Origin: Chitinophagaceae bacterium BSSC1
Lineage (GTDB): Bacteria; Bacteroidota; Bacteroidia; Chitinophagales; Chitinophagaceae
NCBI GenBank assembly: GCA_002256435.1
Contig: NKJC01000001.1
Location: 1,550,001 to 1,614,000, forward strand
Length of the DNA: 64,000 nucleotides
Direction of reading: 5' to 3'
Of the stretch, positions 22,614 to 36,416 are shown in pieces. The notes beneath the pieces are model-generated. The model was not told where the DNA came from. It did no database searches and saw nothing but the letters and a program-made list of their open reading frames with translations. Every line of letters starts with the position of its first letter. Within the stretch, counting starts at the first letter, position 1. The position numbers were made by a program, and so were the translations under genes.

Positions 22614-22640
22614 GATGTACTGAAAAATGGAAATTTTCTT

Positions 22641-22738: not shown

Positions 22739-22801
22739 GCATTGAGCTAGCGCAAAGCTCCAATGTAAATAATGAGGGTTTTTATTAGTGAGATTCGCAT
22801 T

Positions 22802-22931: not shown

Positions 22932-22962
22932 AAAAAAAGCTCCTCAATTTATTGAGAAGCTT
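22932..22962 (-). terminator. Displaced original tRNA-Lys terminator
   Basis: On the minus strand, AAGCTTCTCAAT and ATTGAGGAGCTT pair with one mismatch and are followed by a run of T. It directly follows the leftover tRNA-Lys 3' end (22961-22978). It is best explained as the terminator that served the tRNA before the island inserted. Confidence 0.75.
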
Positions 22963-22978
22963 TGTGATCCCGCTGGGA
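22961..22978 (+). repeat. Left attachment repeat (attL), tRNA-Lys 3' end copy
   Basis: The 18 bases TTTGTGATCCCGCTGGGA recur exactly at 36340-36357, inside the tRNA-Lys gene. They correspond to the 3' acceptor strand, discriminator and part of the T stem. After this copy the sequence departs from the tRNA, so it is a leftover fragment that marks the island's left boundary. Confidence 0.88.
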
Positions 22979-23009
22979 GGATTTTAGGTCAAAAGTTATT
23001 TAAACAAGG

Positions 23010-23027
23010 TTGTACAAGTTTGTACAA
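23010..23027. promoter_or_regulatory. Tandem TTGTACAA palindromes near attL
   Basis: Two copies of the 8-bp palindrome TTGTACAA begin at 23010 and 23020, exactly 10 bp (one helical turn) apart, about 35 bp inside the left attachment repeat. They could be excisionase or integrase sites, or an operator of the integrase gene. Function inferred from position only. Confidence 0.45.
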
Positions 23028-23127
23028 AGATGAACATGTAACTCAATAATAGTAAGGGTTTCATGGAATTCAATTGCACATTTGTCTTCCAAACATGTAC
23101 AACGATGTTGATACCTGTTTAACTCTT

Positions 23128-23147
23128 TTGACACTAAAATTGACACC
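23128..23147 (+). promoter_or_regulatory. Paired TTGACACY sites, left (putative integrase arm sites)
   Basis: TTGACACT (23128) and TTGACACC (23140) are direct repeats 12 bp apart, just ahead of the chosen integrase start. A matching pair with 13-bp spacing sits inside the right end at 36267-36287 in the same orientation. Repeated short sites near both ends are typical of tyrosine-recombinase arm binding sites. Confidence 0.5.
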
Positions 23148-23151
23148 AAAT

Positions 23152-24453
23152 ATGGCAACGCTTAAATTTTATCTGCAACCGCAAAACAAGAAAAACCGCT
23201 ATCCTGTAATGATGGTCTATCAGGAAAAAGGGAAGAAATTCCGCTTTTACACCAGAGCCACAGTAAAAAAGGAGAATTGGGTAAAAAATAGTTTTAAACC
23301 AATTAGCCTAGAAGATTTTGAGATTAAAGAACGGTTTACTGTTTGTCAAAAAGTGATTTCAGAGATTGAAAAAGAGGCTGTTTTACAAAAAAGGACATTA
23401 TCAGTAGAGGAAATGGCCTTAGAATTTAGAGAAAGGATCAAGAAAACAGAAGCTTTTAGAGATTTAGAGTCCAAAGAGCCTTTCGAACCAATCAAAGAGA
23501 CTCAATCAGAGTTCTTTACCCATTTTGATGGATTTGTAGACCAAGCTAGATCAACTAAGGCTAGTGGAACAATTAAACATTATCTGGGCTTTAAACGGCT
23601 TCTATTGAAATACGAAGCATATACAGGAAGACTCATTCAGTTTGAGAACATTAATAGCCTGTTCTATCAAAACTTTCATCATTATTTGATCAATATTGAA
23701 AAAATGATGAATAATACAATAGGAGCACAGATTAAGGAATTAAAAGTTTTTTTAAATTATGCCATGAGGAATGAAATCACTGAGATCAAGTACAATTTCA
23801 AGGATTTTAAGACAATTAAAGAAGATGTAGATATTATTTCAATGACTGAAAATGAGTTATTTAGGCTTTATGAATGTAAAACGTTGAATCAGCAACAAGC
23901 ATTCGCAAGAGACTATGTTTGTTTTGAAAGCTTTACTGGATTAAGATTCTCAGATATTAGCCGTCTGAAAAATGAGAATATCAAGGAGGACTTTATTGAG
24001 TTAAGGACAAAAAAAACAAAAGATATCCTTTTTGTCCCCCTCAATGTATTTGCAAAGGAGATACTTGCCAAGTATGAAGGCAAGTATGAAGACCGTCCTT
24101 TGCCTCCGCCTTATGCCAATCAAAAGGTTAATGAGTATATCAAAGAAGCTGCAAAAGAGGCTAAAATTGATGATTTAACCATGGTTGAGAAGTTTAGTGG
24201 GGCAAACAGGATTGTATTTAGTAAGCCTAAATATGCCTTTATAAGTACCCATACAGGAAGAAGAACCTTTATTACCCTTTCACACGAAAAGGGAATGAAT
24301 ATTGAAATGATCATGAAAATTACAGGAATCAAAAAGTGGGACACATTAAAAAAATACCTCAAGGTTTCAGAAAAGAGTAAATTGATGAAGATGAACGAAT
24401 TCTGGAATCGAGATTCCATGAGAAATCATCCAATAATAAATATGAATTTATAG
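23152..24453 (+). CDS. int: Tyrosine recombinase (island integrase)
   Basis: A 433-residue phage-type integrase of the Bacteroidota kind. I take the ATG at 23152 (MATLKFYLQPQNKKNRYPV) because the N-terminal arm-binding domain begins there, although the frame is open further upstream. The SAM-like core-binding domain is around residues 125-220. In the catalytic domain, SFTGLRFSDISRLKNENI gives the first Arg, HTGRRTFITLSHEKGMN gives the His-x-x-Arg, and KKYLKVSEKSKL holds the Tyr. It would integrate and excise the element at the tRNA-Lys 3' end. It is adjacent to attL, the usual place. Confidence 0.93.
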   Translation: MATLKFYLQPQNKKNRYPVMMVYQEKGKKFRFYTRATVKKENWVKNSFKPISLEDFEIKERFTVCQKVISEIEKEAVLQKRTLSVEEMALEFRERIKKTEAFRDLESKEPFEPIKETQSEFFTHFDGFVDQARSTKASGTIKHYLGFKRLLLKYEAYTGRLIQFENINSLFYQNFHHYLINIEKMMNNTIGAQIKELKVFLNYAMRNEITEIKYNFKDFKTIKEDVDIISMTENELFRLYECKTLNQQQAFARDYVCFESFTGLRFSDISRLKNENIKEDFIELRTKKTKDILFVPLNVFAKEILAKYEGKYEDRPLPPPYANQKVNEYIKEAAKEAKIDDLTMVEKFSGANRIVFSKPKYAFISTHTGRRTFITLSHEKGMNIEMIMKITGIKKWDTLKKYLKVSEKSKLMKMNEFWNRDSMRNHPIINMNL

Positions 24454-24456
24454 GTC

Positions 24457-24759
24457 ATGTCATACATTAATAATTTAACCAAGTCTCAATTAGCAGCAGA
24501 ATTAAGTTTCCTATTGAAGCCATTACAAGATCAAGTTGCAAAGTTAGAAGGAGTAATAGATTCAATGAAAATGGATCGTTCTGGTCAAAAAGTTGAGTTT
24601 TTAAGCACCAAGGAAGTCCAAGAGCTTTTGGGTGTAAGTAGGGGAACAGTCTATAATTATATCAAAGCAGGTAAGCTTAACCAACACAATCTAAGCTCTG
24701 GGAAAGTAGTATTTGATAGGGAAGAGGTGATCAGATTTATCAAATTGACAAAAAAGTAA
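24457..24759 (+). CDS. Excisionase-like helix-turn-helix protein
   Basis: A 100-residue protein with a coiled N-terminus and a MerR/AlpA-type winged helix-turn-helix in the second half: FLSTKEVQELLGVSRGTVYN, YIKAGKLNQHNLSSGKVVF and DREEVIRFI. Proteins of this type in integrase neighbourhoods act as recombination directionality factors (Xis) or regulators. It begins 3 bp after the integrase stop, so the two are co-transcribed. Excisionase activity is inferred from position. Confidence 0.8.
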   Translation: MSYINNLTKSQLAAELSFLLKPLQDQVAKLEGVIDSMKMDRSGQKVEFLSTKEVQELLGVSRGTVYNYIKAGKLNQHNLSSGKVVFDREEVIRFIKLTKK

Positions 24760-24763
24760 ACAA

Positions 24764-25141
24764 ATGAAAAAGATTAATACAATTGAGAGTTCAAATATTG
24801 TAAAAGGATTTCTCACAAAATTCAAACTTGGATTAGAAGAAAAACCGTCAAAAGTGGAATATTTATGTTTGACAATAAAAGACCCCATTTATGAAAAATT
24901 GAACTGTGCGTACTTACAAACAAATGACCTTAAAGAAGGGATTTTGTATGAAGCAGTCACTAATAGATTTTTTATTATCAAACCAGACAGTTTAGGGGTG
25001 ATTAAAATGGATGAACTATCAAAATCAGTAAATACAATCTTTCCTAAGTTATTGAAGGACAAGATGTTTTGGGTTTGCGGTAATAAAAAAGATAAGGAAG
25101 TATTGTTGACAGATCTTGCTCAGACAAGTAAATCCATATAA
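24764..25141 (+). CDS. Island protein of unknown function
   Basis: A 125-residue protein, not recognised. It has no membrane segment or signal peptide. The middle part (EYLCLTIKDPIYEKLNCAYL and YEAVTNRFFIIKPDSLGV) looks like alternating strands of a small folded domain, and the end holds two cysteine-free helices. It is tightly packed: it starts 4 bp after the excisionase-like gene and is followed 3 bp later by another HTH gene, so it belongs to the integrase transcript. Confidence 0.65.
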   Translation: MKKINTIESSNIVKGFLTKFKLGLEEKPSKVEYLCLTIKDPIYEKLNCAYLQTNDLKEGILYEAVTNRFFIIKPDSLGVIKMDELSKSVNTIFPKLLKDKMFWVCGNKKDKEVLLTDLAQTSKSI

Positions 25142-25144
25142 TTT

Positions 25145-25510
25145 ATGTTATACAATCAACTTGCCCAAGAACAGATAATTCAATTGATGCCCTATATAGA
25201 AGAATTGGTAAAAATGGAAGTTAATAAAGCAATGTCCAATTACTCTAAATTATATGAACAAGATTTAAAACGTACCGCTAAAGTCCAATATTCAAGTATC
25301 CAAGAATTGTGCATAGCAATAGGTAAGACTAGACAACAAGTATATAATTGGGAAATGGGTAAAGTTCAAGGGTTAGACATTTCCTCTTTTATTAAAAAGT
25401 CAGGGCGTTTTAAAAGATATGATATTGAAGGAATCAGATTATATCTAGAGAAATTAATTGACCATGCAGAGCGTTTTGGTTCTTCCAGGTTTTCTAAACG
25501 TAAAGTTTAG
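25145..25510 (+). CDS. Second helix-turn-helix protein of the integrase operon
   Basis: A 121-residue protein with a helical N-terminus (QIIQLMPYIEELVKMEVNKA) and a DNA-binding-like region, SSIQELCIAIGKTRQQVYNW, followed by DISSFIKKSGRFKRYDIEGI. This resembles the same MerR/AlpA layout as the gene two positions upstream, though more divergent, and ends in a basic tail. It is probably a regulator or DNA-binding accessory protein of the element. It is the last gene of the int transcript; a 145-bp gap follows. Confidence 0.65.
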   Translation: MLYNQLAQEQIIQLMPYIEELVKMEVNKAMSNYSKLYEQDLKRTAKVQYSSIQELCIAIGKTRQQVYNWEMGKVQGLDISSFIKKSGRFKRYDIEGIRLYLEKLIDHAERFGSSRFSKRKV

Positions 25511-25588
25511 CTGGTTCTTTTAGGGGTAAAAGAATGTAAAGTTTTGTAAAGCTTTGAGTAAACTAGATTGCACACAGTGGGCAGTGAT

Positions 25589-25613
25589 TGGTAGATGTTA
25601 TATACATCTACCA
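25589..25613. other. Perfect inverted repeat ahead of the HNH gene
   Basis: Arms TGGTAGATGT/ACATCTACCA are exact over 10 bp around a 5-base loop (TATAT). It lies 42 bp before the HNH start and is not followed by a T-run, so it is more likely an operator or leader structure than a terminator. Confidence 0.55.
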
Positions 25614-25655
25614 TTTACGGAATGAAGGAATTAAAATATTTTATAAAATAGAATT

Positions 25656-26396
25656 ATGGACGAATATGAGGAGTTGCTTAATAGTGATGAATGGAAAAGA
25701 AAAAGAAATTTGATCTTAATAAGAGATCAAAATAAATGTACCAATTGTAAAAATGAAATACTCCTTTCAGATTGTGAGAAGGGGGAATTGTCATTTGTGA
25801 AAAGCAACAAAGAATCTAAAATATTTAACTTAAACACAAGTCATGAATGCTATACAATATATACGCCCCGTATTGGTGGTTTAAAAGCTCATCAGGGCAT
25901 TGGGTATTTTAAAATGAATCAAGCTGAGCCAATGCTAATAGCAGCTAGAGAAAGGCATTTAAATGACAATTATGAAAAATATTATAAAATAATAGGTAAG
26001 TACAAAAATGATCCTAGTTATAAAGCATTATTAATGTACTTCTCAGGTGTTTATAATATCCCTGCCGAAGAATTGGATGCTTTAAGTCCTGATCAGCCTT
26101 TTTCAAGCTTTAAATGGTTTTGGATCAGAGGTATGCATGTTCATCATCTATATTATAAAGTTGGATTGAAGCCATGGGAATATGACAATGATGCATTAAT
26201 TACTTTATGTTGGAAATGTCATGAAGAAATTCATAAGACCCAAAAAATACCGTTTTTAGATGAATCAGGAAAGCCATTATTTAAATTAACTCCATGTAAA
26301 AGATGTTCTGGAACTGGGTGGATTCCTAAATACGATTATATAGAAGATGGTATCTGTTTTGAATGTAGAGGAAAGAAATTCCAAGAATTTATGTGA
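25656..26396 (+). CDS. HNH-type nuclease-like protein with zinc ribbons
   Basis: A 246-residue protein. The N-terminus NSDEWKRKRNLILIRDQNKC followed by TNCKN is the opening of many HNH endonucleases. The HNH core is GMHVHHLYYKVG and ALITLCWKCHEEIHK, giving His-His and the closing His, with zinc-binding CxxC pairs. A long insert of about 110 residues separates the first CxxC from the core. The C-terminus holds a DnaJ-like zinc finger with CKRCSGTGW and CFECRGKKF. Predicted metal-dependent DNA or RNA nuclease. It is convergent with the helicase operon, so a functional link is possible but not shown. Confidence 0.78.
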   Translation: MDEYEELLNSDEWKRKRNLILIRDQNKCTNCKNEILLSDCEKGELSFVKSNKESKIFNLNTSHECYTIYTPRIGGLKAHQGIGYFKMNQAEPMLIAARERHLNDNYEKYYKIIGKYKNDPSYKALLMYFSGVYNIPAEELDALSPDQPFSSFKWFWIRGMHVHHLYYKVGLKPWEYDNDALITLCWKCHEEIHKTQKIPFLDESGKPLFKLTPCKRCSGTGWIPKYDYIEDGICFECRGKKFQEFM

Positions 26397-26488
26397 TTTA
26401 TTTCTCTTGCCAGAGAGGCTCGCTTCGCGAAGAGGTATTTCAAGGATATTGGTAATATTTTAAAATTTATAATTTTCAATGAATAAAT

Positions 26489-26527
26489 AATATAAAATAG
26501 CAAAAATATAATTTGCTATTTTATATT
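26489..26527. terminator. Bidirectional terminator between HNH and helicase genes
   Basis: Exact 16-bp arms AATATAAAATAGCAAA/TTTGCTATTTTATATT around a 7-base loop lie between two convergent genes, with AT-rich flanks on both sides. This is a typical shared terminator. The rest of the 154-bp gap shows nothing else. Confidence 0.75.
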
Positions 26528-26550
26528 TTAATGTTAATCTGATATATGAA

Positions 26551-29500
26551 TTAGATTTTTGTTTTGGCAATTGCATCCATTATGTTTAATAAATGAATAT
26601 TTTCTTTAAAATAGTTAGAAATTTTAGAGATATATCGATCACTCCAAAATGGGTGAATTAGTATATATACATCATTAAATCTTTTGATTGTATAAATGTT
26701 ATTTACAATATTTCTTTTTCCATCAATTTTATTTTCTAGAGTTCTAAGTAATCTATTTTCTATAAAGTCTTTCCAGTATTCTTGTGAAAAATCTAAAATT
26801 GAGTTAGGATCAGCTGCAAGTGAAGCAAGATCAAGAGCAATTCGCCAATTTAAAAGACTATGATGTTGCTGATTATAATAATCTCTAAGACAATCATAAC
26901 ATGAGGATGAGCAATTTTTTTCATGCTCGTTTCTCATTAGAATTTCTTGATAAACTCGACCTTTTGGTAAAAGGGATTTTAAAAATATTTTTTCTGATAT
27001 TTCTCGATCTTGAATACCATTCAAATGATTACAGTATCCAGCACCATTATCTGCTTTTTCAACAATATAAATCTCCGGTTTGTTTGTAACAGGAGCAATT
27101 CTATATCCAATATCAAATTCATTAGTTTCGATATCTAAATCATCGCAAATTGCTTTTCGAATTAAAAATGCCCATGATAGAAATGCAGCTTTCTGATAGT
27201 TATTTGTTAAATCACCAAATTCATAAATATCAATTAATTCATTTATTGATAACGTGATAACTCCTGTATGCCTTGAAGCTATAAATGCGAATAGGTCTTC
27301 ATCTAAAAGATTTGTATTAGGATTATTTAATAAATTTTTTACAACCCAACGATTATTTTGATATCCTGAAATCTTTCCAAGTTTAAATAATGCCCCATTA
27401 TTATCATTAATTTGATGAACAATACCTTCAGATGGTACTTGGTTGGAATTTATACAAATATTATTAATTAAAACTTTATTTATAAGTTTTGAATTTGGGT
27501 CTAAAGTTACTTCACCTGCTTTTGAAGACCACTCAAAACTGCCATCGAAATCTTTAATAATTTGTAATTCATAATCAACACAAAATCCTAAAGGAGAACA
27601 TGCTTTTATATTTTCAACATTACTATTACAAATTGGGCATGAGTTGTTTTCAATCAAATCTAAATAGACAGTATTACATTTTACACATCTGTTAATTCCA
27701 TTTGGCAAAAGCCCCCTACCATCAACCTCTACAATTCCCCCATCTCTAGGAATATAATGTACAAGTCCAATTGGACTTAATACTTTTTTATCTTTAATTA
27801 TTTCACTACCCGGTGCAAATTCAGATATTGCTAAATCTAAATTTCGATCTACAACATTTTCAGGTGGGAGTCTTTTGGGTCTGTTTTCATATAATATTCT
27901 AACTTTTGTAGGAAAACCAAACATTGGTAAATAACCTGCATTTGCCAACCTTTCACTTAAAGCAATTTGAGTATATTCTTTATTGTTTTCAGCAATTTCA
28001 GTAATTGTTTTAACTAAATTAAACTTAGTAAAATCATAAATTTCTTGACTTGTAACAGTAATAAATGTACCTAATTTTAAAAAAGAAGCTATATCTTTTA
28101 TTTCTACTTCATTTTCAAGAATCCAATTTTGAATTTGATCTTTATAAGAATTCCAATCATAATAATTCCCAAACTCTCCATGAATATTATCCGACTTAAA
28201 TTCATCAGTAAGTATTATATTTTCGAATGCTCTTTTTAATATTTCTTTATTAAATACTCTGTAAAAAATTTCATCTCGTTGAAGTTCTAGATACGGATCA
28301 GGAGGTGTATTAGAGACCATTCGATGTGACTGTGCGTAATGGGTTTGATCATGGCTATTGCCTTTTGCAATCGTCAATGCAATTGACAATGGTTTTCCTC
28401 TTCTTCCTGCTCTACCGACTCTTTGTTGATAATTAAATCTTTGTGGTGGAACATTGCCTAACATGACTGCCGATAATGATCCAATATCTACACCAGCTTC
28501 CATAGTAGTTGTTACACTTAAAAGATCAATTTCCTCTACAATATTTATTTCTCCTTCAAGAGTTCGACCTTGAAATAGTCTTTGTCTCTTCTTAGCATCT
28601 TCTTTATTTGTCTGACCAGTTAATTCTTCACAATGAAGTCTTGATGGTTTATTTTCTCTAACAAGTTTAGATAAATAGACGTAATAATTTTCATAATTAT
28701 TTATTTCTCTAGAACTTAAAATATGAGGTGGTGGTAACGTAGATGCACAGCCAGTACAGATTCCCGCACTATCATGTAAATGAATCGTATTACAAATATT
28801 GCATTTCCAATATTTCTCATTTATTTGTGATGGAGCAAAAACTAATCCGTTCCCAGTTAGAACTCTAAAATTTTCACTGGGAATAATATTATTATCAATT
28901 AAAAAATCAAGTATATTATTTAATATGTCTTTTGGAAAATTATAGCCATTGAAATTAAAAACCTTTCTAGAGTATTTCCACAATTTTTTAGGAAAGCCTG
29001 ATTCATTTCCTCTCGAGGCTCCTTCAATTCTCCAAGATTCACCTAGAATTCTAATTGCTGAATTTAAGTAACTATTTATATATGAATCTGGATGATTTTT
29101 AATCATAATAATTTTACCTTGAACTAAAGATTCAAGTGATCTTTTATTATGTGCAAAAATTGTAATTAATATTTCTTTATTACATGAGTCTAAAATTTTA
29201 TTATGTAAGTCATGTGCTCTAGATCCAAAGTTCTTTAATTTAAAAAATTTAGAATTGAAATCATAGTTTTCAATCCAACCGTCATTTAATGAAGGTCCGG
29301 ATCCTCCTGGATTTATTCCGATAGAAAAAAGAGAATTAATTACATTCTTTTGAATTTTATCAACTCGTACAGTATTTTTTGAATTGAAATATTTATCTAG
29401 TTTTTCATCTCCTTCAGTAGAAGGGAAATTTATATCTTCTAAAATCTCATTATATTCTAGTGAGTTTGAAATTAGTTTTAATTTGACATAATCTTTATCT

Positions 29501-31656
29501 GTTAGATCGCTTTTATTTTTCCAATATTTTTTAAGTAATTCTTTTTCATCTGATTTTTCTTCTAGTGAATTTAAAAGAATTGCTCTAAGTGTATCTCTAT
29601 AATGATCTAATTCAATACCAGCTGCTAGTTTAGCAGCGGCTTGTCTACTATCAGAGAATAAAACAAGTTTTGCTGGATTTTTCGAATTTGAATATTTATT
29701 TAAGGCTAACATTAAAGAATCAGCCATTAGTTGATTTACTTTTTGAACCCCTGTGTAATGTTTAAAAATTGGGGTTAGAGTACTTGCATTTTTTATTTTT
29801 TCAGAATAATCACAATTGTAACAGTGATTTGGATATTGAGTTTCGTATGTATTGTTGAAAAATAGATTTATACCTATTCGTGTTCTATCAAATTTCCCAG
29901 TTATTGAATTATAATTACACTTTTTCCATTCTTTATTTTCTATTTCATTTGTCGGATATATAGTATAATATTTATTATTGTTATTGTATGAATCTTTTTC
30001 AATTGACAAATATGACTCATCATGTAATTTGTTTTCCCATCCACCTAAATAGATTTCACCACATTGTCTGCATAGTAATACTTCTAAAATAACCCCTCCA
30101 CATCTGCAAGAGGTTTGAGGTTTACGATATAATTTCCCAATATTTCTATTTTCGTATTTAAACTTTTCAGGAACTTCACTGCAATTAATATTTGAGCAAG
30201 CCCATAAACCATCAATATTTCTAAAAAAGTAATGAGCTCTTAATGGTTGTTGTGCATCCCCTTTATCATTTACAATTTTTGTTAATCCAATCAAAAGTCC
30301 TTCTAATGCTAAGATTGTATCAGAATTATATTTTCCAAATAACTTTTCAGTAATTATATCAGCTTCTATTGCTTTAGGGATGTATTTTTTTAATATATCT
30401 AATGTTTGGTCAGATTTAAAAATAGTTTCTATTTCTGATTGAGTGTTATCATTTGTTATATTTTTATATTTCTCTATTTCAAGATGGTTATAAATTTTTT
30501 CATTTATTAAAATCTCATCTCTTATTACTTCAAATTTATTTTGAAAGTTATTAATGTCTAAGCCAAAAAATCCTGCTATGAAGTTTTTAGTTCTTTCTGT
30601 TTCCTGCATTGACGCACTTGAACATAAAAATTGCACTTGTGGTGAATCTGGACTTAATCCTAGTTTAAGTAACAATAGTCTTATCAAATAAGCTACTTCG
30701 GTACCTGATGTTCCTCTGTATGAATGAAGTTCATCAATTATTAAGTGGAAAACATTTTTCTTATCTGATTGTAACCATTCCTTTGTTTTAATAAAAATTG
30801 TTTCCTCAGTATCCCTCATTAACATTATATTCAACATACTGTAATTAGTAATAAGAATATCTGGAGGAGTTTTTTGCATGGTTAATCTATCCCAATATTC
30901 AATTTCTTTTGTATTGTCCATATTAGGAATATCAAATAGATAATCGTCGTCATTAGTTTCAACCGCTTTTCTTTTTGCAGATTCATATTCTTTTTTAAGT
31001 TTCTCTTTCTCAGTTGCCAACATTTTTCTTTTTTTGTCAGAATCTTTCCCACTAAATGGTGTTACTCCTGTATATCTTCCAAAAGATATCGTTTGTCCAT
31101 TTAAATTCTCGTCAAAGTACTTTACTACACTATCCTTACTTAAACTTTTTCTTAACCTCCTCATTTGATCTTCTGCTAAGGCATTTAAAGGATATAAAAT
31201 CAGCCCCTTAACTGCATGTTGATTAGTATTTGGATTATTTAATTTTGAAGAGAAAATATCATATAATAGTGGAAGCAAAAAGCATTCAGTTTTTCCAGAA
31301 CCTGTCCCGGTTGTAACAACAATATGTTTTCTCTCTTTAGTTGCTTTTTTTAAAGACAAATATTGATGGTGGTATAATTTACTTTCAATATTGTTATGAT
31401 CAACAAATAGCCCTTTTCTTGCAAAATCTGAAAAACGTGAATCTAAATTCAAAATATTACAAGCTTCAGCTAATGTGCAATGCTCTCTATATCTTGGAAT
31501 AAGTTCAATAATTGGATTTTTAGCGATAGCCTCAGGTTCTTCTAATAATTCTTTTCGTTCTTCTTCAAGAGCTTTATATTTAATTGGTAAACCAGTATCT
31601 ATATATTTAAGATAAACATCTCTTAATTCACGCCAGACTTCGAATGAGTTATTCAT
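26551..31656 (-). CDS. Large DEAD/DEAH helicase with DUF1998-like C-terminus (DruE-like)
   Basis: A 1701-residue superfamily 2 helicase. Walker A is VVTTGTGSGKTECF (near 115-123), the DEAH-type box is LIIDELHSYRGTSG, motif III is CSSASMQE, and motif VI is QQRVGRAGRRGKPLS (near 1080), preceded by TTTMEAGVDIGSLSAVM. Several CxxC zinc clusters are scattered (CRQCGEIYLGG, CYNC, CNIC, CVKC, CPIC). The C-terminal part (DNGAGYCNHLNG and CSSSCYDCLRDYYNQ, near 1580) is the DUF1998 zinc module seen in MrfA-, DISARM- and Druantia-type helicases. It is the last gene of four coupled genes, with a 4-bp overlap upstream. It would unwind or translocate on DNA. Very AT-rich, so probably horizontally acquired. 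Confidence 0.9.
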   Translation of the reverse strand: MNNSFEVWRELRDVYLKYIDTGLPIKYKALEEERKELLEEPEAIAKNPIIELIPRYREHCTLAEACNILNLDSRFSDFARKGLFVDHNNIESKLYHHQYLSLKKATKERKHIVVTTGTGSGKTECFLLPLLYDIFSSKLNNPNTNQHAVKGLILYPLNALAEDQMRRLRKSLSKDSVVKYFDENLNGQTISFGRYTGVTPFSGKDSDKKRKMLATEKEKLKKEYESAKRKAVETNDDDYLFDIPNMDNTKEIEYWDRLTMQKTPPDILITNYSMLNIMLMRDTEETIFIKTKEWLQSDKKNVFHLIIDELHSYRGTSGTEVAYLIRLLLLKLGLSPDSPQVQFLCSSASMQETERTKNFIAGFFGLDINNFQNKFEVIRDEILINEKIYNHLEIEKYKNITNDNTQSEIETIFKSDQTLDILKKYIPKAIEADIITEKLFGKYNSDTILALEGLLIGLTKIVNDKGDAQQPLRAHYFFRNIDGLWACSNINCSEVPEKFKYENRNIGKLYRKPQTSCRCGGVILEVLLCRQCGEIYLGGWENKLHDESYLSIEKDSYNNNNKYYTIYPTNEIENKEWKKCNYNSITGKFDRTRIGINLFFNNTYETQYPNHCYNCDYSEKIKNASTLTPIFKHYTGVQKVNQLMADSLMLALNKYSNSKNPAKLVLFSDSRQAAAKLAAGIELDHYRDTLRAILLNSLEEKSDEKELLKKYWKNKSDLTDKDYVKLKLISNSLEYNEILEDINFPSTEGDEKLDKYFNSKNTVRVDKIQKNVINSLFSIGINPGGSGPSLNDGWIENYDFNSKFFKLKNFGSRAHDLHNKILDSCNKEILITIFAHNKRSLESLVQGKIIMIKNHPDSYINSYLNSAIRILGESWRIEGASRGNESGFPKKLWKYSRKVFNFNGYNFPKDILNNILDFLIDNNIIPSENFRVLTGNGLVFAPSQINEKYWKCNICNTIHLHDSAGICTGCASTLPPPHILSSREINNYENYYVYLSKLVRENKPSRLHCEELTGQTNKEDAKKRQRLFQGRTLEGEINIVEEIDLLSVTTTMEAGVDIGSLSAVMLGNVPPQRFNYQQRVGRAGRRGKPLSIALTIAKGNSHDQTHYAQSHRMVSNTPPDPYLELQRDEIFYRVFNKEILKRAFENIILTDEFKSDNIHGEFGNYYDWNSYKDQIQNWILENEVEIKDIASFLKLGTFITVTSQEIYDFTKFNLVKTITEIAENNKEYTQIALSERLANAGYLPMFGFPTKVRILYENRPKRLPPENVVDRNLDLAISEFAPGSEIIKDKKVLSPIGLVHYIPRDGGIVEVDGRGLLPNGINRCVKCNTVYLDLIENNSCPICNSNVENIKACSPLGFCVDYELQIIKDFDGSFEWSSKAGEVTLDPNSKLINKVLINNICINSNQVPSEGIVHQINDNNGALFKLGKISGYQNNRWVVKNLLNNPNTNLLDEDLFAFIASRHTGVITLSINELIDIYEFGDLTNNYQKAAFLSWAFLIRKAICDDLDIETNEFDIGYRIAPVTNKPEIYIVEKADNGAGYCNHLNGIQDREISEKIFLKSLLPKGRVYQEILMRNEHEKNCSSSCYDCLRDYYNQQHHSLLNWRIALDLASLAADPNSILDFSQEYWKDFIENRLLRTLENKIDGKRNIVNNIYTIKRFNDVYILIHPFWSDRYISKISNYFKENIHLLNIMDAIAKTKI

Positions 31657-32537
31657 ATATTAATGATTTTAGCACTAAAGAAATTATTTAATATTTTATA
31701 TGTAGATAATTCTGCGAAATAAATTCTATTTGAAATCCCACTAAAATTTCCAGTATTTAATAAAGTATTGATAATTAATAAACGTTCTATTATAATAGGA
31801 AAATAAGGATTTAATATTTTGAGTGAATTATTTGAACTATTATATTCAATTTTTAAATCTTCTTCATTTTTTATATCTGAATACATTTTTGCAATATTGA
31901 ATCCATCTATATTGATTTTGTTTGATGGTATTCTTTTCCAAATATTATTATTGAATTTCAATACCTTATTTGAATAACTTTTGTCGTTTTTCTTATAAAT
32001 CCCAATAGGGTAATTTATGTTTGATATCCACTTATTATTTGAATTAAACAATAAATAGTCTTTTGTTTCTATTGTTAAATCTGTTTCCCATCTTATAATA
32101 ATATTTCCTATATTATTTAAATATTTTAAAAAAAAATCTAAATTGAATAATTGAGGTATAACATTAATTTGCTTTAAACGAAACTTAATTTCTTTATTAT
32201 TTGATAATAAATGCAGAGAGTTAAATCTCGATTCAATTATATATTCTTTTATTGTTTCAATTTGATTATCTGAAAAATTTACTATTAAGATATATTTATT
32301 TGTTTCAAGTGCAAATGTCGGGGACAACGCAAATTTCATATTTGGATATGATTCCAAGATGCCCTCTTTTACCAAAGGATTGATAATTGTATATTTTATT
32401 CTTTTTTCAACTTTTTCATCAATTTCATTAGCGATTATATTTTCACAGATTCTAATTAAAGAATTTATTGAATGTTTCTCATTTGGTTTTCGCCATAGAA
32501 ATTCTATTAATCCATATTTGACTTCATCGGTACTCAT
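31653..32537 (-). CDS. Operon protein with possible winged-helix N-terminus
   Basis: A 294-residue protein, family not recognised. Residues about 1-75 look like a winged-helix domain: SINSLIRICENIIANEIDEK, then YTIINPLVKEGILESYP and a strand FALSPTFAL. The rest alternates short strands and helices (IKEYIIESRFNSLHLL, VIPQLFNLDFFLKYL) with no motif I can name. It overlaps the helicase start and the preceding gene's end by 4 bp each, so it is translated with them. Size and position just ahead of the helicase recall druD of Druantia type I, which is an analogy of layout only. Confidence 0.75.
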   Translation of the reverse strand: MSTDEVKYGLIEFLWRKPNEKHSINSLIRICENIIANEIDEKVEKRIKYTIINPLVKEGILESYPNMKFALSPTFALETNKYILIVNFSDNQIETIKEYIIESRFNSLHLLSNNKEIKFRLKQINVIPQLFNLDFFLKYLNNIGNIIIRWETDLTIETKDYLLFNSNNKWISNINYPIGIYKKNDKSYSNKVLKFNNNIWKRIPSNKINIDGFNIAKMYSDIKNEEDLKIEYNSSNNSLKILNPYFPIIIERLLIINTLLNTGNFSGISNRIYFAELSTYKILNNFFSAKIINI

Positions 32538-34264
32538 ATTTCAAAATAATGGGAAATGTAGTTCGAAGTAAAAGTTGAATGATTATTTATTTCTGAAATA
32601 TTAAGTAAAAGAGACGTGTTGTCAATTTCAATAGAAATGTTTTCTAGCTCTTCAGGAAAAGCTCCCCAATTTTTATAAGTTGATTCTAATAATGGTAGTC
32701 CGAAATCAGATTTTTCAGTTCTTTCAATTGGTATACCAAATAGCCATAAATTGTTAGGCCAATTTATATTATTATTTGGCAATTTATTTCTAACTCCATT
32801 TATAATATCAAGAATTGGTTTTCCATAACATTCAATACTTGACATATTTATGTCTTCTAGTATTAGAAAATGAATTACTTCTGGATTCTCAATGGAATAT
32901 TTACAAATCTGGTTTAATCCGTTATGAAAAAAGTTTTCAAATTTTATCCAATCTGGTTCAACTTGTTGTATAAGTATTCTTGAATTATTTGTTGCTTTTG
33001 CAATTTGTTTTATTAAACTTATATTATTTGAGATAAATGCTTTATGGTACTTTAATTGATATACAACAGCTTTTATATATTTTTCATAGTTTGTATTTTC
33101 ATCTGTATTATTAATGTTTTGAACTAAATAATGTAAATAATGATTTAAATCATCATAATTTTTGCATTCATTTATATATTCTTGTATTTCAAATGAACTA
33201 AATGCTAGATTATTATTTGTATTAAAATTTTCGAATACTGGTGAAAGAATTTTAAGATCATTATAAAATCTTTCTTTATTTTGATTTATATACTCTTGTT
33301 CTTTAATTAAATTTAGATTTTCATCTTTTGATTTTTCAACTTGTTCTTTAATACTATTTAAAATATTTTTATTAATAGTTATTTCTTTTAAAATTTCTTG
33401 TTTTTCATTATTGACTTTCAGTAATATTTCCTCTTTTATTTCTAAATTATATTTTGTAATTATTTTATCTAATTCGATTTTAAGTATTTCAGATGAATTA
33501 ATAAGAAGGTTTAAATTCTCTTGACTTAATTGTAATTGATCTATTTGAGTAAATGCCCTTTTTATTCTAGCTTCATCTAATTCATTTAATTCTTGAGATT
33601 CAAATGATCTTTTCAATAAAGAATAGTCAATGTTTATATTAATATTTTTTATTTGTTGTTTAAACCAATCTGTCAATTGAGGTATTGTCATACAATCAAT
33701 TTTACAAATTGGATTTGTTGGTTCATTTAAAATAAATATATTTTCACCTGTTTCAAATAATTGTAAATTATCACTTTCATATTTAAACACCTCTTTACCA
33801 ATTTTTGGTATTATTTCATTATTTGAATATTTAAATGGACCATATAAGTATCCTTTTGAATGAATATAAAAATGGTTTTTTTCATTTGATATATAGTTTT
33901 TAAGAAACTTTTGATCAATAGAATTAGAATTAAGTAAAATATTTGCTTTGACTGAATAAATTTTATGTCCTACATTTCTACATTCTTTAGATACATCCAT
34001 TAATGTGGTATCTAATTTTTGCCCCATTTTGGGAATTGATGGAAATGGATTAATCGAAAATTCTATTAATGTATTTAATTCTATATCATATTTTTCAAAA
34101 AATTTAGGTGCAAAAACAAAACCTTCAGGTGGAAATTGATTTTTTATTTCATCATGATCTGTTATGTAGTTATCATTTAATTTAAATCTATGAATTTTTA
34201 TTCTTCCACTTAAATCACTTTTTTGCTCTTCAATGGATCCAATTATTTTAGTAATAGAGTTCAT
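32534..34264 (-). CDS. Coiled-coil protein with degenerate McrB-like AAA+ domain
   Basis: A 576-residue protein. About residues 210-340 form a long charged coiled coil (EILLKVNNEKQEILKEI and neighbours). About 395-530 look like an McrB-type AAA+ module: ILIQQVEPDWIKFENFF fits the conserved Q-x-x-PDW segment, VIHFLILEDINMSSIECYG fits Walker B with the McrB-type DEMN, here EDIN, and NLWLFGIPIERT fits sensor 1. The place of the P-loop reads YHKAFISNNISLIKQIAKA and lacks Gly-Lys-Ser/Thr, so nucleotide binding looks lost. It may be a structural or sensing subunit. It overlaps both neighbours and belongs to the helicase operon. The McrB relation is my reading of the pattern. Confidence 0.7.
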   Translation of the reverse strand: MNSITKIIGSIEEQKSDLSGRIKIHRFKLNDNYITDHDEIKNQFPPEGFVFAPKFFEKYDIELNTLIEFSINPFPSIPKMGQKLDTTLMDVSKECRNVGHKIYSVKANILLNSNSIDQKFLKNYISNEKNHFYIHSKGYLYGPFKYSNNEIIPKIGKEVFKYESDNLQLFETGENIFILNEPTNPICKIDCMTIPQLTDWFKQQIKNININIDYSLLKRSFESQELNELDEARIKRAFTQIDQLQLSQENLNLLINSSEILKIELDKIITKYNLEIKEEILLKVNNEKQEILKEITINKNILNSIKEQVEKSKDENLNLIKEQEYINQNKERFYNDLKILSPVFENFNTNNNLAFSSFEIQEYINECKNYDDLNHYLHYLVQNINNTDENTNYEKYIKAVVYQLKYHKAFISNNISLIKQIAKATNNSRILIQQVEPDWIKFENFFHNGLNQICKYSIENPEVIHFLILEDINMSSIECYGKPILDIINGVRNKLPNNNINWPNNLWLFGIPIERTEKSDFGLPLLESTYKNWGAFPEELENISIEIDNTSLLLNISEINNHSTFTSNYISHYFEI

Positions 34265-35808
34265 TATTTATGTTTTAGAATAGAGAATAATAAATTATCA
34301 TTTGTCGACTTAAATTTTTTCGATGATGTATTTAATTTAATCCATTCCCTAATTAAATTATTATTTTCATTTTTTAATATAATTGAATTGCCTTCAATAT
34401 GATAGTTTTCCGATAATTCATAGTTTGTTAAATTCCATCCTAGTGTTTTACTATTAATAGTTATCTCTAATTTCGTTTTTTCAATAATTGAAAACTTTAT
34501 ATCTGGGTAATTAGAAACCCTTATTTTATAATCTCCTACTTCAGCTATTTTAGGATTATATTCTATTTTGTTATTCTTGTATATGACATTCCATTTCGAT
34601 TCACCAGTGATTGTTGGTCCATAATTTTTTATGTATTCATTTCTTCTACCAAGTTTTAATCCATATTTTAATTTAATTGGTAGCGGAGGTGAAATGTATT
34701 TTTTCAATGGTGAATTTTCATACATTATCTCATTAAACTTAAATAGAAAAACCCTTTCATTTATTGATTCAATTAATTCAGAAAATTTCAATAAATAATT
34801 TGTAATTGAACTATTTGTTATTTTATCAATTAATATAAATACTGTTTGTGAGGAATATATAAATCTGGATTCTTCATACTCTTGTTCATAACTTTCTATT
34901 TGGTTAAAAAAGATGACCCCAGTGTGGATGTATTTATAATTGGGAATTGAAAAAATATTTTGCTTGTTTATTTCCTTTACCTCATTCATTTTATCATTAA
35001 CAATATAATATTGAGCACTTTCACTTATTATCAATATTAATTTTAAATCATTTTCAGCTGTTTTTAAGTCCCGTTTATTTGATAACTGTTTTAAAGGTGT
35101 TTTATGTTTGTATATAGTTCCATCCCAAGAAATATAAAAATTAAAAATTTGTTTAAAACAGTCTTCTGAATATTCCGCGTCTAACAATTTATTTAATCCA
35201 ATATTTGATATATCTATGTTTGTTAAATTAGTTTCTATAATATTTTTAAAATAATTATAAGGTAATAATTCATGAACTTTAAATTCTTCTGAAAAAAATA
35301 TTGTGATTCGTTTTAAATCTTCAAATTTTAATAAGCATTGTGATTTTGGATATTGTACAAACCGACCAGCATAAAATGTTTTCGGTGGTAATTTTAATAT
35401 TAGACTATGTTTTTTATTAAAATATGATTTTGCATCTTCCCATATTATTTCCTGAATCGGGGATGTATGATTTTTACCTCGAAATAATATTTGTAAATCA
35501 ATGTTATCTCTAATTCCTAGTAATTGACATAATCTTATTTGATAATTTGATGCTGTACTTAAATTATCATTTTGCATTAAAGATGCTGCTAGGCACTGAA
35601 TACTTAGAAGACCTATATACATAGGTATTTCATTATTATATGCGAATAATTTATCCCAGTTGTTTTGTAATAATTTAAAATTATGTATTTCTGATATTGA
35701 TATTATGCTTTCAAATTCTATTACATCAATAGATAAATTAAAAAATTCTCCGTTACTTCTTTTTAAATAGAAATCAAGAACTTTTGAATTAAAATCGATA
35801 TAATTCAT
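34264..35808 (-). CDS. First gene of helicase operon, unknown family
   Basis: A 514-residue cytoplasmic-looking protein, not recognised. The N-terminal half is helical, with the stretch MYIGLLSIQCLAASLMQ and a following YQIRLCQLLGIRDNIDLQ. A central FYAGRFVQYPKSQCLLKFED looks like a conserved core. The C-terminal 130 residues (KLGRRNEYIKNYGPTITGE, GDYKIRVSNYPDIKF, LEITINSKTLGW) look like one or two small beta-sandwich (Ig-like) domains. Its stop shares one base with the next start (TAATG). Position and size recall druB of Druantia type I; no DruA-like gene precedes it. Function inferred only from the helicase partner. Confidence 0.75.
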   Translation of the reverse strand: MNYIDFNSKVLDFYLKRSNGEFFNLSIDVIEFESIISISEIHNFKLLQNNWDKLFAYNNEIPMYIGLLSIQCLAASLMQNDNLSTASNYQIRLCQLLGIRDNIDLQILFRGKNHTSPIQEIIWEDAKSYFNKKHSLILKLPPKTFYAGRFVQYPKSQCLLKFEDLKRITIFFSEEFKVHELLPYNYFKNIIETNLTNIDISNIGLNKLLDAEYSEDCFKQIFNFYISWDGTIYKHKTPLKQLSNKRDLKTAENDLKLILIISESAQYYIVNDKMNEVKEINKQNIFSIPNYKYIHTGVIFFNQIESYEQEYEESRFIYSSQTVFILIDKITNSSITNYLLKFSELIESINERVFLFKFNEIMYENSPLKKYISPPLPIKLKYGLKLGRRNEYIKNYGPTITGESKWNVIYKNNKIEYNPKIAEVGDYKIRVSNYPDIKFSIIEKTKLEITINSKTLGWNLTNYELSENYHIEGNSIILKNENNNLIREWIKLNTSSKKFKSTNDNLLFSILKHK

Positions 35809-35926
35809 AAATACCTAAACAAATAATTACTAAATGTGATAATGTTGTATTATAATTATTGCACAGTGTTTACCTTAAAATGTTATTGATCGAGTGTAGA
35901 CATATTTATTTTAAGTAATTTTTTTA

Positions 35927-36130
35927 TTATGCTTTTTTCGCTTCTTTAAATAATTCATCACTTTGAATTATTAAACCTTGTTTTTCAGCTAATTCAATCA
36001 AAACTTTCGTTTGCATGAATGTATAAATCTTTATTTTTTCAGTTGCCTTCATCGTTTTATAAACAGAATTAACAATTACTATCAAGGTTATCAAGCTTAT
36101 AATAGAACTTATTATATAAACGCTTTCCAT
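35927..36130 (-). CDS. Small single-pass membrane protein of the island
   Basis: A 67-residue protein with one N-terminal transmembrane helix (YIISSIISLITLIVIVNSVY) followed by a charged amphipathic helix (TMKATEKIKIYTFMQTKVL and IELAEKQGLI). It lies 118 bp upstream of the helicase operon on the same strand. Small membrane proteins sometimes accompany defence operons as effectors or anchors, but it could equally be unrelated. No family recognised. Confidence 0.55.
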   Translation of the reverse strand: MESVYIISSIISLITLIVIVNSVYKTMKATEKIKIYTFMQTKVLIELAEKQGLIIQSDELFKEAKKA

Positions 36131-36266
36131 ATTAGATATATTAATATTGTATAGAGTATAAGTTAAACAAATTTCTTATTAAATTAAATAATTATTTGAT
36201 TCAATAAGAAATCTTAATAGATTAAATCTTCCTCAAATTCTATAAGATTAGGATGAAATGTCTAAA

Positions 36267-36287
36267 TTGACACCAACTTTTGACACC
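36267..36287 (+). promoter_or_regulatory. Paired TTGACACC sites, right (putative integrase arm sites)
   Basis: TTGACACC at 36267 and at 36280, 13 bp apart, mirror the pair at 23128-23147 near the other end and have the same orientation. They sit about 55-75 bp inside the right attachment repeat. Likely arm sites for the integrase. Confidence 0.5.
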
Positions 36288-36292
36288 AGATC

Positions 36293-36328
36293 AAAAAAAA
36301 ACCGCTCAAACTTACTGTTTGAACGGCT
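36293..36328 (-). terminator. Terminator supplied by the island to tRNA-Lys
   Basis: On the minus strand a hairpin pairs the 36302-36311 arm (CCGCTCAAAC) with the 36317-36326 arm (GTTTGAACGG), one mismatch, followed by a long T-run. It lies directly downstream of tRNA-Lys and replaces the original terminator now at 22932-22962. Confidence 0.8.
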
Positions 36329-36339
36329 TCTTTTTCTTG

Positions 36340-36357
36340 TTTGTGATCCCGCTGGGA
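36340..36357 (+). repeat. Right attachment repeat (attR) within tRNA-Lys
   Basis: Exact second copy of the 18-bp TTTGTGATCCCGCTGGGA. It covers the 3' acceptor strand, discriminator and part of the T stem of tRNA-Lys on the minus strand, so integration leaves the tRNA intact. Confidence 0.88.
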
Positions 36358-36416
36358 CTCGAACCCAGGGCCCATACATTAAAAGTGTATTGCTCTACCA
36401 ACTGAGCTACGGAATC
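36344..36416 (-). tRNA. tRNA-Lys (anticodon UUU)
   Basis: A complete 73-nt cloverleaf: acceptor GATTCCG paired with CGGGATC (one T-G wobble), D arm GCTC-AGTTGGTA-GAGC, anticodon arm ATACA-CTTTTAA-TGTAT, T arm CTGGG-TTCGAGT-CCCAG, discriminator A. CCA is not encoded; the DNA continues CAAAC. Anticodon TTT reads lysine codons. Its 3' end is the integration site of the adjoining island. Confidence 0.97.

What the first reader, a model, noticed from the sequence alone, without database searches (positions are those of the whole stretch)
26551..35808. Coupled four-gene helicase operon: candidate divergent defence system
Seen: four minus-strand genes (514, 576, 294 and 1701 residues) overlap by 1-4 bp each, and the last encodes a DEAD/DEAH helicase with a DUF1998-like zinc C-terminus. 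The operon is AT-rich cargo of a tRNA-integrated island. Known: DUF1998 helicases are core parts of Druantia (DruE) and DISARM (DrmA/DrmB); in Druantia type I the helicase is last of five genes after druA. Inference: the gene order recalls Druantia I minus a DruA (DUF4338) gene, and there is no methyltransferase or phospholipase D as in DISARM. It may be a new Druantia subtype or a separate system.
Basis: partly seen in the sequence, partly recalled or inferred. Interest (0 to 1): 0.8.

Follow-up and report, generated by a model that had tools for sequence, protein, structure and literature searches.

The report
New Druantia variant on mobile island
Four overlapping bacterial genes form a so far unlabelled version of the Druantia anti-virus system, combining parts that were used to tell two of its types apart, and they ride on a small mobile element whose close relative carries other cargo.

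Summary
In detail: four minus-strand genes (514, 576, 294, 1701 aa) overlap by 1-4 bp inside a 13.4-kb AT-rich element integrated in tRNA-Lys. An 18-bp repeat bounds the element, and a congener shows the empty site. Profile work identifies all four proteins. The 1701-aa helicase is DruE, the 514-aa protein DruF, the 576-aa protein a diverged DruG (the type II marker) and the 294-aa protein a diverged DruL (the type IV marker). No DruA, DruH or DruM was found. PADLOC's models detect only DruE and DruF here. The same F-G-L-E order, complete, accompanies 26 of the 80 closest DruE loci of species genomes; their helicases form one well-supported clade with a short RecA1 region (27-31 residues, against 51-79 in other type II/IV-like helicases). 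DruG ends in an McrB-like AAA+ fold with no P-loop, so it looks like a pseudo-GTPase. Neighbours of relatives hit many more defence models than control genes. A congener's sister element has the same integration genes and another cargo. So this is a new Druantia variant bridging types II and IV; a link to Druantia I is not supported, and it is not a separate system. Anti-phage activity and mechanism are untested.

The parts
26551..31656 (-). druE: 1701-aa YprA/MrfA-like SF2 helicase; motifs TGTGSGKT (116), DELH (308), QRVGRAGR (1078) intact; MZB/DUF1998-like zinc region
   Evidence: PADLOC DruE4 1296 bits, DruE2 1273 bits; Pfam DEAD, Helicase_C, sub-cut-off MZB; motifs; clade
31653..32537 (-). 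druL-like: 294 aa, unfused DruL homologue
   Evidence: family profile vs type IV DruL profile: 99.0%, E 3.4e-18, nearly full length; 2 of 30 family members, not this one, hit PADLOC DruL4, best 3.9e-19
32534..34264 (-). druG-like: 576 aa; N-terminal beta-rich domain, helical part and long coiled coil, C-terminal McrB-like AAA+ domain without P-loop
   Evidence: family profile vs type II DruG profile: 99.0%, E 5.8e-18, N and C parts each on their own; AlphaFold model pLDDT 86.9; McrB 6ut6_D Z 12.8; 6 of 30 members hit PADLOC DruG2 weakly, best 0.0058
34264..35808 (-). druF: 514 aa
   Evidence: PADLOC DruF4 1.2e-8 for this protein; DruF2 model PDLC00023 hits 23 of 28 family members, best over all DruF models 5.5e-29; profile vs type IV DruF 99.9%, E 1.5e-33
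22961..22978 (.). distal att repeat, exact 18-bp copy of the sequence at the tRNA-Lys 3' end
   Evidence: empty site in a congener
36340..36357 (.). proximal att repeat at the tRNA-Lys 3' end
36343..36416 (-). tRNA-Lys(ttt), integration target
   Evidence: ARAGORN; Rfam RF00005
23074..24453 (+). tyrosine integrase of the element
   Evidence: Pfam Phage_int_SAM_5 8.5e-11, Phage_integrase 5.9e-9; 83% identical protein in the congener's sister element
24457..24759 (+). excisionase-like HTH protein
   Evidence: HTH_17 5.1e-13, TIGR01764 excise 8.1e-8; 92% identical in sister element
24764..25141 (+). small element gene of unknown function
   Evidence: 71% identical in sister element
25145..25510 (+). 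small element gene of unknown function
   Evidence: 54% identical in sister element
25656..26396 (+). HNH-like zinc protein, other cargo beside the operon (weak assignment)
   Evidence: Pfam HNH 0.015, below cut-off; no similar ORF of 150 aa or more in loci L055-L135 at E 1e-5

Best explanation
The operon is a Druantia anti-phage system of a variant not yet labelled: druF-druG-druL-druE, carried by a tRNA-Lys-integrated mobile element. It has the DruE helicase and DruF common to types II and IV, a DruG like type II and a DruL like type IV, and no DruM that I could find. Shown here: gene content, conservation of the order, an intact helicase core, an McrB-like domain without P-loop in DruG, the element's ends. 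Inferred mechanism: DruE is the ATP-driven motor and loads on exposed 3' single strands of invading DNA, as measured for the type III DruE (PMC13192584). DruG, which lacks a P-loop, is a structural scaffold whose coiled coil and pseudo-AAA+ domain hold DruF and DruL on DruE. DruF and DruL sense or present the foreign DNA. The complex strips or blocks phage replication intermediates. No nuclease was recognised in any of the four, so breakdown is left to host nucleases or to a degenerate domain not recognised here.
For: Identity: PADLOC DruE4/DruE2 and DruF; profile-profile F 99.9%, G 99.0%, L 99.0% against type IV/II/IV parts, with wrong pairings of these three families at or below 3.9%; G homology in both end domains, with the coiled coil alone at 4.6%. 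Conserved unit: 26 of 80 loci complete; one helicase clade, support 1.0 (104 rows) and SH-aLRT 100 (15 clade rows of 48). Helicase motifs: motif I in 30 of 30, QRVGRAGR in 30 of 30, DELH in 26 of 30 clade helicases. DruG pseudo-GTPase: McrB fold Z 12.8, profile vs McrB 91.2% (3 of its 8 McrB sequences had been found with the same DruG profile), P-loop in 0 of 30. Defence setting: neighbours hit 228 PADLOC models against 27 for control ORFs; sister element with other cargo. Literature: DruE type III unwinds 3'-tailed DNA (sections 9 and 11 of PMC13192584).
Against: No phage challenge of this variant is known to me, and none of the passages I read reports one for type IV. The mechanism is carried over from type III, whose DruE has an active PLD nuclease domain that none of these four proteins shows by Pfam. 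DruF gave no recognisable fold and DruL no Pfam domain. 'Scaffold' for DruG is inferred only from loss of the P-loop. PADLOC's own DruG model is only a weak hit (6 of 30 members, best 0.0058) and coiled-coil models such as LmuB rank above it (8 of 30, best 8.5e-6). Sequence similarity of druL to the window's gene is not detectable by BLAST in 9 of the 26 loci. The variant is rare near home: 1 of 395 phylum genomes by single-protein search (low sensitivity) and, at full length, 1 of 294 family genomes by profile, both times the window's own genome.
Confidence: 0.75

Rival explanations
1. It is simply a divergent type IV Druantia (DruF, DruL, DruE) that happens to carry an extra DruG gene, and deserves no separate label.
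For: DruL and DruF are closest to the type IV parts. In the helicase tree the clade lies among type IV lineages with weak deep support, and type IV itself is not one clade (4 changes). The Poribacterial and Gastranaerophilales F-G-L-E loci have helicases outside the clade.
Against: PADLOC defined type IV as lacking DruM and DruG (PMC8565338, section 14). A G gene is present in all 26 complete loci, and the clade's RecA1 spacing does not overlap that of other such helicases (27-31 in 30 of 30, against 51-75 in the 48 measurable of 54 others and 53-79 in 5 of 5 type II).
Confidence: 0.3
2. It works as an abortive system: DruG/DruF sense infection and DruE destroys DNA without discrimination, killing the cell.
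For: A type III Druantia of Mycolicibacterium is reported as abortive (PMC13316683; I saw the outline with abstract and section headings only).
Against: No nuclease domain was recognised in any of the four proteins. The related ARMADA is described as non-abortive (abstract of PMC12458937).
Confidence: 0.2
3. DruF, or the C-terminal region of DruE, hides a degenerate but active nuclease, so the complex cuts phage DNA itself.
For: Type I/II DruE are said to end in Vsr-like domains (predicted inactive; passage of PMC12458937). DruF has an alpha/beta part at about 255-360 in the model and some well-conserved acidic residues elsewhere (D28 in 23, D164 in 24, E180 in 20 of 28). A Vsr endonuclease gene follows druE in the type II locus L142.
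Against: No PDB match to DruF's model above Z 6.1 and none with Foldseek E under 0.001; no McrC similarity of DruF; I recognise no nuclease motif in its conserved columns, which is a judgement by eye.
Confidence: 0.25
4. The operon is a housekeeping DNA-repair or mobile-element maintenance unit, not defence.
For: YprA/MrfA relatives repair DNA (section 5 and passages of PMC12458937). It sits inside a mobile element.
Against: The helicase's best named matches are DruE models. Relatives sit next to genes hitting Mokosh, pAgo, RM, BREX and DRT models, and a sister element carries other cargo in its place.
Confidence: 0.05

Closest known systems
Druantia type IV (DruF-DruL-DruE; PADLOC, PMC8565338)
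   Same: DruE, DruF and DruL homologues in the same relative order; no DruM found
   Different: has an additional DruG between F and L; helicase lacks the RecA1 insertion (27-31 vs 51-75 residues); PADLOC's DruL model does not detect this DruL
Druantia type II (DruM-DruF-DruG-DruE)
   Same: DruF, DruG and DruE homologues; my profiles suggest the long type II DruF carries a DruL part at its C-terminus (type IV DruL against it: 92.9%, E 3.7e-7; our own DruL family against it only 2.8%), so the F, L, G, E content may match
   Different: no DruM-like ORF found in the window; F and L are separate genes and G precedes L; a common clade of all DruG-bearing helicases is rejected (p-AU 1e-59)
Type IV CoCoNuT (name given to Druantia I/II by Bell et al., PMC12458937)
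   Same: inactivated McrB-like (CnuB-like) protein with a coiled coil beside a YprA helicase
   Different: no McrC similarity in F or L; the words DruF, DruG and DruL do not occur in its main text, and the parts I read (sections 5, 7, 26 and passages) describe no such four-gene order
Druantia type I (DruA-E)
   Same: helicase last in the operon; short RecA1 spacing (27-30 in the 4 measurable of 10 type I, III and other YprA helicases); 3 of 30 DruG-family members hit DruC1 weakly (0.0048)
   Different: no DruA found; no detectable profile similarity of type I B/C or D proteins to F, G or L (at most 3.9%)
DISARM (DrmA/DrmB) and ARMADA
   Same: YprA-family helicase
   Different: DrmA match is far weaker (2.9e-17 vs DruE 0); DUF1998-like region is fused, not a separate DrmB; no methyltransferase, PLD or BrxHII-like partner recognised among the 10 proteins scanned

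Membership tests
Druantia (any type) | DruE, YprA-family helicase with DUF1998-like zinc module | tested here: met
   PADLOC DruE4 1296 bits; MZB 21.0 bits, just under the 24.2 cut-off; helicase motifs intact
Druantia type I | DruA (DUF4338) | tested here: not met
   No DruA match among the 10 proteins scanned: the operon, the five other element genes and one flanking gene. The same library found DruA in L042 (1.7e-196).
Druantia type I | DruB, DruC, DruD homologues | tested here: inconclusive
   No profile match of F, G or L to type I B/C or D (at most 3.9%), but only 2-3 type I sequences went into those profiles, and 3 of 30 DruG-family members hit DruC1 weakly (0.0048)
Druantia type II | DruM cytosine methyltransferase | tested here: not met
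   DruM of L142 finds no ORF in the window or in 33 related loci at E 1e-5, while it finds relatives in L139 and L141 but none in L140; divergent methyltransferases could be missed
Druantia type II | DruF and DruG | tested here: met
   DruG profile 99.0%, E 5.8e-18; DruF N-half 90.4%, E 1.4e-6. PADLOC's own DruG model gives only 6 of 30 family members, best 0.0058.
Druantia type III | DruH | tested here: not met
   No DruH match among the 10 proteins; the same library found DruH in L044 (7e-117)
Druantia type IV | DruE, DruF and DruL | tested here: met
   DruL 99.0%, E 3.4e-18; DruF 99.9%, E 1.5e-33; DruE4. PADLOC's DruL model itself hits 2 of 30 family members, not the window's.
Druantia type IV | absence of DruG and DruM (PMC8565338, section 14) | tested here: not met
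   DruG homologue present
CoCoNuT / McrBC | active McrB-like GTPase (P-loop) | tested here: not met
   P-loop pattern in 0 of 30 DruG-like proteins, although the C-terminal fold is McrB-like
CoCoNuT / McrBC | McrC-like nuclease partner | tested here: inconclusive
   McrC profile (9 sequences) does not match F, L or G (at most 0.2%)
DISARM | separate DrmB, methyltransferase, PLD protein DrmC | tested here: not met
   none recognised among the 10 proteins scanned (one methyltransferase model is hit only by the excisionase's HTH); [quoted passage not shown]
Druantia (any type) | anti-phage activity | not testable with these tools
   needs a plaque assay

The most novel reading that the evidence does not exclude
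F-G-L-E is the complete, ancestral form of the DruF-bearing Druantia systems. Type IV arose by losing DruG, type II by fusing DruF with DruL and adding the methyltransferase DruM. Its pseudo-McrB subunit DruG is a dead ring or scaffold, so that here a restriction system kept the McrB platform but changed the engine from GTPase to the DruE helicase. A tree with this clade branching first cannot be rejected (p-AU 0.50), the F-G-L-E set also occurs in Poribacteria, and its helicase lacks the insertion that the measurable type II/IV-like helicases share.
Probability: 0.3. Interest if true: 0.65.

Novelty: new variant of a known kind. Interest (0 to 1): 0.52.

Why it matters
It joins two Druantia types that were told apart by which of two parts they have, and explains both 'unknown' middle genes as diverged DruG and DruL. 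PADLOC's models miss both here, so systems like this are likely to go unlabelled, mostly in Bacteroidota. It offers a compact four-gene set with DruF, DruL and DruG unfused, in which the role of an McrB-like protein without a P-loop can be tested by single-gene deletion. The element itself, with a congeneric sister that carries other cargo, shows how such systems move.

Tried and rejected
Druantia I minus DruA: rejected as the closest relation, with the weak DruC1 hits left open. DISARM and ARMADA: rejected by score and partners. DruF as McrC: no support. DruF fold: no match (absence of a match shows nothing about the fold). DruL domain: Pfam gave only scattered weak hits, 1 of 30 members each; my impression of an N-terminal winged helix is by eye and unsupported. 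Single-sequence searches for the 576-aa protein found nothing in plasmids, viral contigs or the 394 other phylum genomes; sensitivity was low, as the helicase-profile scan later brought in relatives. A PDB profile search with the DruG family gave mainly coiled-coil matches among the 60 shown, and the DruG profile's hits in 14 of the 17 other family genomes were short ones in or near the coiled coil; only three went through the McrB-like part. PADLOC counts for neighbours (228 vs 27) count models, not proteins, many of them overlapping, and generic helicases can hit several; only 25 of each list were shown. The neighbour set (100 ORFs of 27 loci, L118 included; up to two ORFs of 110 aa or more on a side, one upstream ORF of L080 left out) is larger than the control set (86 ORFs of 18 of the 20 control regions fetched). 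One clade for all DruG-bearing helicases was rejected. Deep branching order of types II, IV and this clade stays unresolved; the tree is a quick one under one model, with warnings of long branches in the outgroup and of odd letter make-up, the window's row included.

The claim that this four-gene set is not in print rests only, in an open-access library, and on the parts of papers named in the report. Searches were spoilt because DruG also matched 'drug'; the two other papers that one search listed with Druantia and DruL turned out to mean Drulisvirus and an author's name. Two more papers were looked at only for passages on Druantia. Supplementary tables of PMC12458937 could not be read and may contain such loci.
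Full report
Observation. The helicase carries DEAD and Helicase_C domains and a zinc region just below the MZB cut-off. The genes lie in an element of 13.4 kb, 22961-36357, with 27.3% GC against 41-42% outside. An exact 18-bp repeat marks both ends, one copy covering the tRNA-Lys 3' end.

The element. It encodes a tyrosine integrase and an excisionase-like protein next to the distal repeat. In a congener (G753; locus L217) the tRNA and the sequence homologous to the window's left flank are contiguous and share the 18-bp core, which is the empty site (tRNA 97% over 77 bp, flank 67% over 266 bp). A second tRNA-Lys in the window's own genome has the same arrangement (L218; tRNA 100% over 77 bp, flank 80% over 203 bp). 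In another congener (G759; L216) the tRNA holds a sister element of about 12.5 kb, 23-31% GC by kilobase; there the 18-bp core is complete at one end and 13 bp of it at the other. Its integrase is 83% identical, its excisionase 92%, and two small genes 71% and 54%, but the cargo differs and none of it matches the F, G or L models. Two cargo genes there, of 437 and 708 aa, match at 83% and 61% a pair lying upstream of the four-gene operon in Dyadobacter (L060), with one 503-aa gene between. By recalled knowledge the pair resembles BrxD and a BrxH helicase; one neighbour ORF hit PADLOC's BrxHI/BrxHII model (3e-125) in a set that included the 708-aa protein of L060, but the output does not say which ORF.

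Identity of the proteins. PADLOC names the helicase DruE (DruE4 1296 bits, DruE2 1273, DruE1 668) and the 514-aa protein DruF (1.2e-8), and finds nothing for the other two. Of these 80, 26 hold all four genes in the same order and strand, mostly overlapping or nearly so: L055-L064, L066-L072, L074, L075, L077, L078, L080, L092, L100, L109, L114. In L074 druL and in L109 druE is split over two ORFs. By BLAST with the window's own proteins (E under 0.1), the 576-aa gene is matched in 26 of 26, DruF in 25 of 26, the 294-aa gene in 17 of 26; the remaining cases rest on position and size. L065 and L073 are cut by contig ends, L076 has no recognised DruF, L082 is a fragment. L118, L108 and L124, also among the 80, have the same order but helicases outside the clade (below). 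One more complete copy is in IMG/VR (L135, near-identical to L092; 4 loci found in all).

Profile-profile comparison identified the middle genes. The 294-aa family matches type IV DruL at 99.0% probability, E 3.4e-18, over almost its whole length. The 576-aa family matches DruG of type II loci at 99.0%, E 5.8e-18. The DruF family matches type IV DruF at 99.9% and the N-half of type II DruF at 90.4%. Wrong pairings were mostly under 1%; the highest were our DruF against the type I 950-aa protein (3.9%) and type IV DruF against it (5.8%). These E-values are for single pairs. To exclude a coiled-coil artefact I cut DruG: the N-terminal part alone gave 95.6%, the C-terminal part 94.0%, the coiled coil 4.6%. 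Bridging evidence: PADLOC's DruG2 model hits the 704-aa protein of L139 at 3.4e-21, which the 576-aa family's model also hits (7e-13 in a small ORF set). Directly, PADLOC's DruG2 hits only 6 of 30 family members (best 0.0058), DruC1 of type I 3 of 30 (0.0048), and coiled-coil models such as LmuB rank higher (8 of 30, 8.5e-6). Among DruL family members, 2 of 30 hit PADLOC DruL4 (3.9e-19). The type II reference loci are four plasmid loci and one viral contig with a long first gene, DruG and DruE in that order; only L142 has an annotated cytosine methyltransferase directly upstream, and the DruM search finds relatives of it after druE in L139 and far upstream in L141, so 'type II' for L137 and L139-L141 is my label.

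A side result. Type IV DruL matches the C-terminal half (543-863) of the type II DruF profile at 92.9%, E 3.7e-7, and in L036 PADLOC itself reads DruF (1-569) and DruL (616-950) in one protein; so type II DruF is probably a DruF-DruL fusion, though our own DruL family gives only 2.8% against it. No DruM-like ORF was found in the window or in 33 related loci; the same search found none in L140, so it may miss divergent ones.

The pseudo-GTPase. AlphaFold gives the 576-aa protein a good model (mean pLDDT 86.9, pTM 0.46). Its residues 365-542 match E. coli McrB best (6ut6_D: Foldseek E 4.1e-4; Z 12.8, rmsd 3.2, 158 residues); many other AAA+ chains follow at Z 10-12. Through this part the family profile finds McrB-like GTPases in three related genomes (L167, L169, L170), each with the P-loop GLSGSGKT, and in L167 aligns a P-loop-less stretch of DruG to it; its hits in the 14 other genomes are short and mostly in the coiled coil. 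Profile against McrB: 91.2%, the eight other families at or below 4.7%, the 4.7% being type II DruG itself; 3 of the 8 McrB sequences used had been found with this same profile, so that figure is partly circular, while the fold match is not. The P-loop pattern is in 0 of 30 DruG-like proteins (a GK[ST] tripeptide occurs somewhere in 10); the Walker B position reads for example LEDIN, LQDIN or LQNIN. That Druantia I/II encode inactivated McrB-like CnuB relatives is already stated in PMC12458937 (passages).

The helicase. Thirty helicases of this clade keep motif I and QRVGRAGR in 30 of 30, DELH in 26 of 30. The stretch between motif I and YPLNAL is 27-31 residues in all 30, but 51-75 in the 48 measurable of 54 other type IV-like helicases, 53-79 in 5 of 5 type II and 53-57 in the 4 measurable of 5 of the Poribacterial group; in 4 measurable of 10 type I, III and other YprA helicases it is 27-30. 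The clade is supported in two trees (FastTree, 104 rows, 1.0; IQ-TREE quick, 48 rows of which 15 are of the clade, SH-aLRT 100); L109, whose druE is split, is in neither. Its members come mostly from Bacteroidota, with Treponema, Epulonipiscium, proteobacterial and planctomycete MAGs by record title. Type II is a separate clade. Joining all DruG-bearing helicases is rejected (p-AU 1e-59), while placing our clade as first branch (0.50) or with the Poribacterial group (0.48) is not. Poribacterial loci L108 and L124 have a related DruG between F and L (97.3% against our DruG family), L116 one that covers its C-terminal half, and L118 has all four genes.

DruF and DruL remain without a known fold or domain. 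The DruF model (pLDDT 82.4) has a helical N-part, an alpha/beta part and a part that aligns with Ig-like chains; nothing in the PDB matches above Z 6.1. DruL has no Pfam domain and was not modelled.

Context. Up to two nearest ORFs on each side of 27 loci (100 ORFs, one of the loci being L118) hit 228 PADLOC models at E 1e-15, with Mokosh, pAgo, type I and III RM, BREX, Dpd and DRT models among the first 25 shown. These are counts of models, not of proteins. Near home the variant is rare: only the window's own genome among 395 of the phylum by single-protein search, and only it at full length among 294 of the family by profile.

How it probably works. Known for type III: DruE unwinds 3'-tailed and forked DNA and cuts long DNA, with a predicted active PLD domain (sections 9 and 11 of PMC13192584). 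Our DruE keeps the motor, but Pfam sees no nuclease in any of the four. I therefore favour a complex in which DruG is a dead McrB-like scaffold, DruF and DruL recognise or present DNA, and DruE strips or blocks replication intermediates. My own order of confidence is: Druantia variant (about 0.95), anti-phage role (about 0.9), helicase as motor (about 0.85), DruG as scaffold (about 0.6), no own nuclease (about 0.6).

Known or new. The parts are known (PMC8565338 section 14; PMC12458937, sections 5, 7, 26 and passages). The combination DruF-DruG-DruL-DruE without DruM is not described in what I read of the papers found. By the published type definitions it fits neither II (DruM missing) nor IV (DruG present), and only DruE and DruF of this operon reach PADLOC's models.

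Noticed in passing
L216 (G759:C1:1028500-1043500), about 0.77-13.2 kb: Sister element at the same tRNA-Lys in a congener: same integrase (83%), excisionase (92%) and two small genes, but other cargo (by eye an ATPase and an ion-channel-like protein, and a 663-437-708-aa set with a helicase). Probably a cargo-swapping defence element family.
   Followed up: partly
window 22636-22763; G000:C1:208648-208850: Two 62-nt copies (81% alike, 66 bp apart) with an internal palindrome by eye just outside the distal att site; sequence similar to this flank lies beside the second tRNA-Lys of the same genome. Origin unknown.
   Followed up: no
window 25656-26396: HNH-like zinc protein of 246 aa convergent with druE inside the element, a second possible cargo gene; no relative among ORFs of 150 aa or more of loci L055-L135 at E 1e-5.
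   Followed up: partly
L036, L037, L039: DruF proteins of 947-1032 aa directly before DruE with no separate DruL; in L036, the only one scanned, PADLOC reads DruF and DruL in one protein.
   Followed up: partly
L110:15968-19744: An Acidobacteria locus has a DruG-like (776 aa) and a DruL-like (460 aa) ORF on the opposite strand next to druF-druE, a rearranged or second system.
   Followed up: no
L060:526-3965: A 437-708-aa pair (83% and 61% identical to cargo of the congener's sister element) lies upstream of the four-gene operon in Dyadobacter psychrotolerans, with one 503-aa gene between.
   Followed up: partly
G000:C2:1323805-1324734: The window's genome also encodes an McrC-family protein (PF10117, 1.3e-59), so an McrBC-type system may coexist with the pseudo-McrB of this operon.
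   Followed up: no
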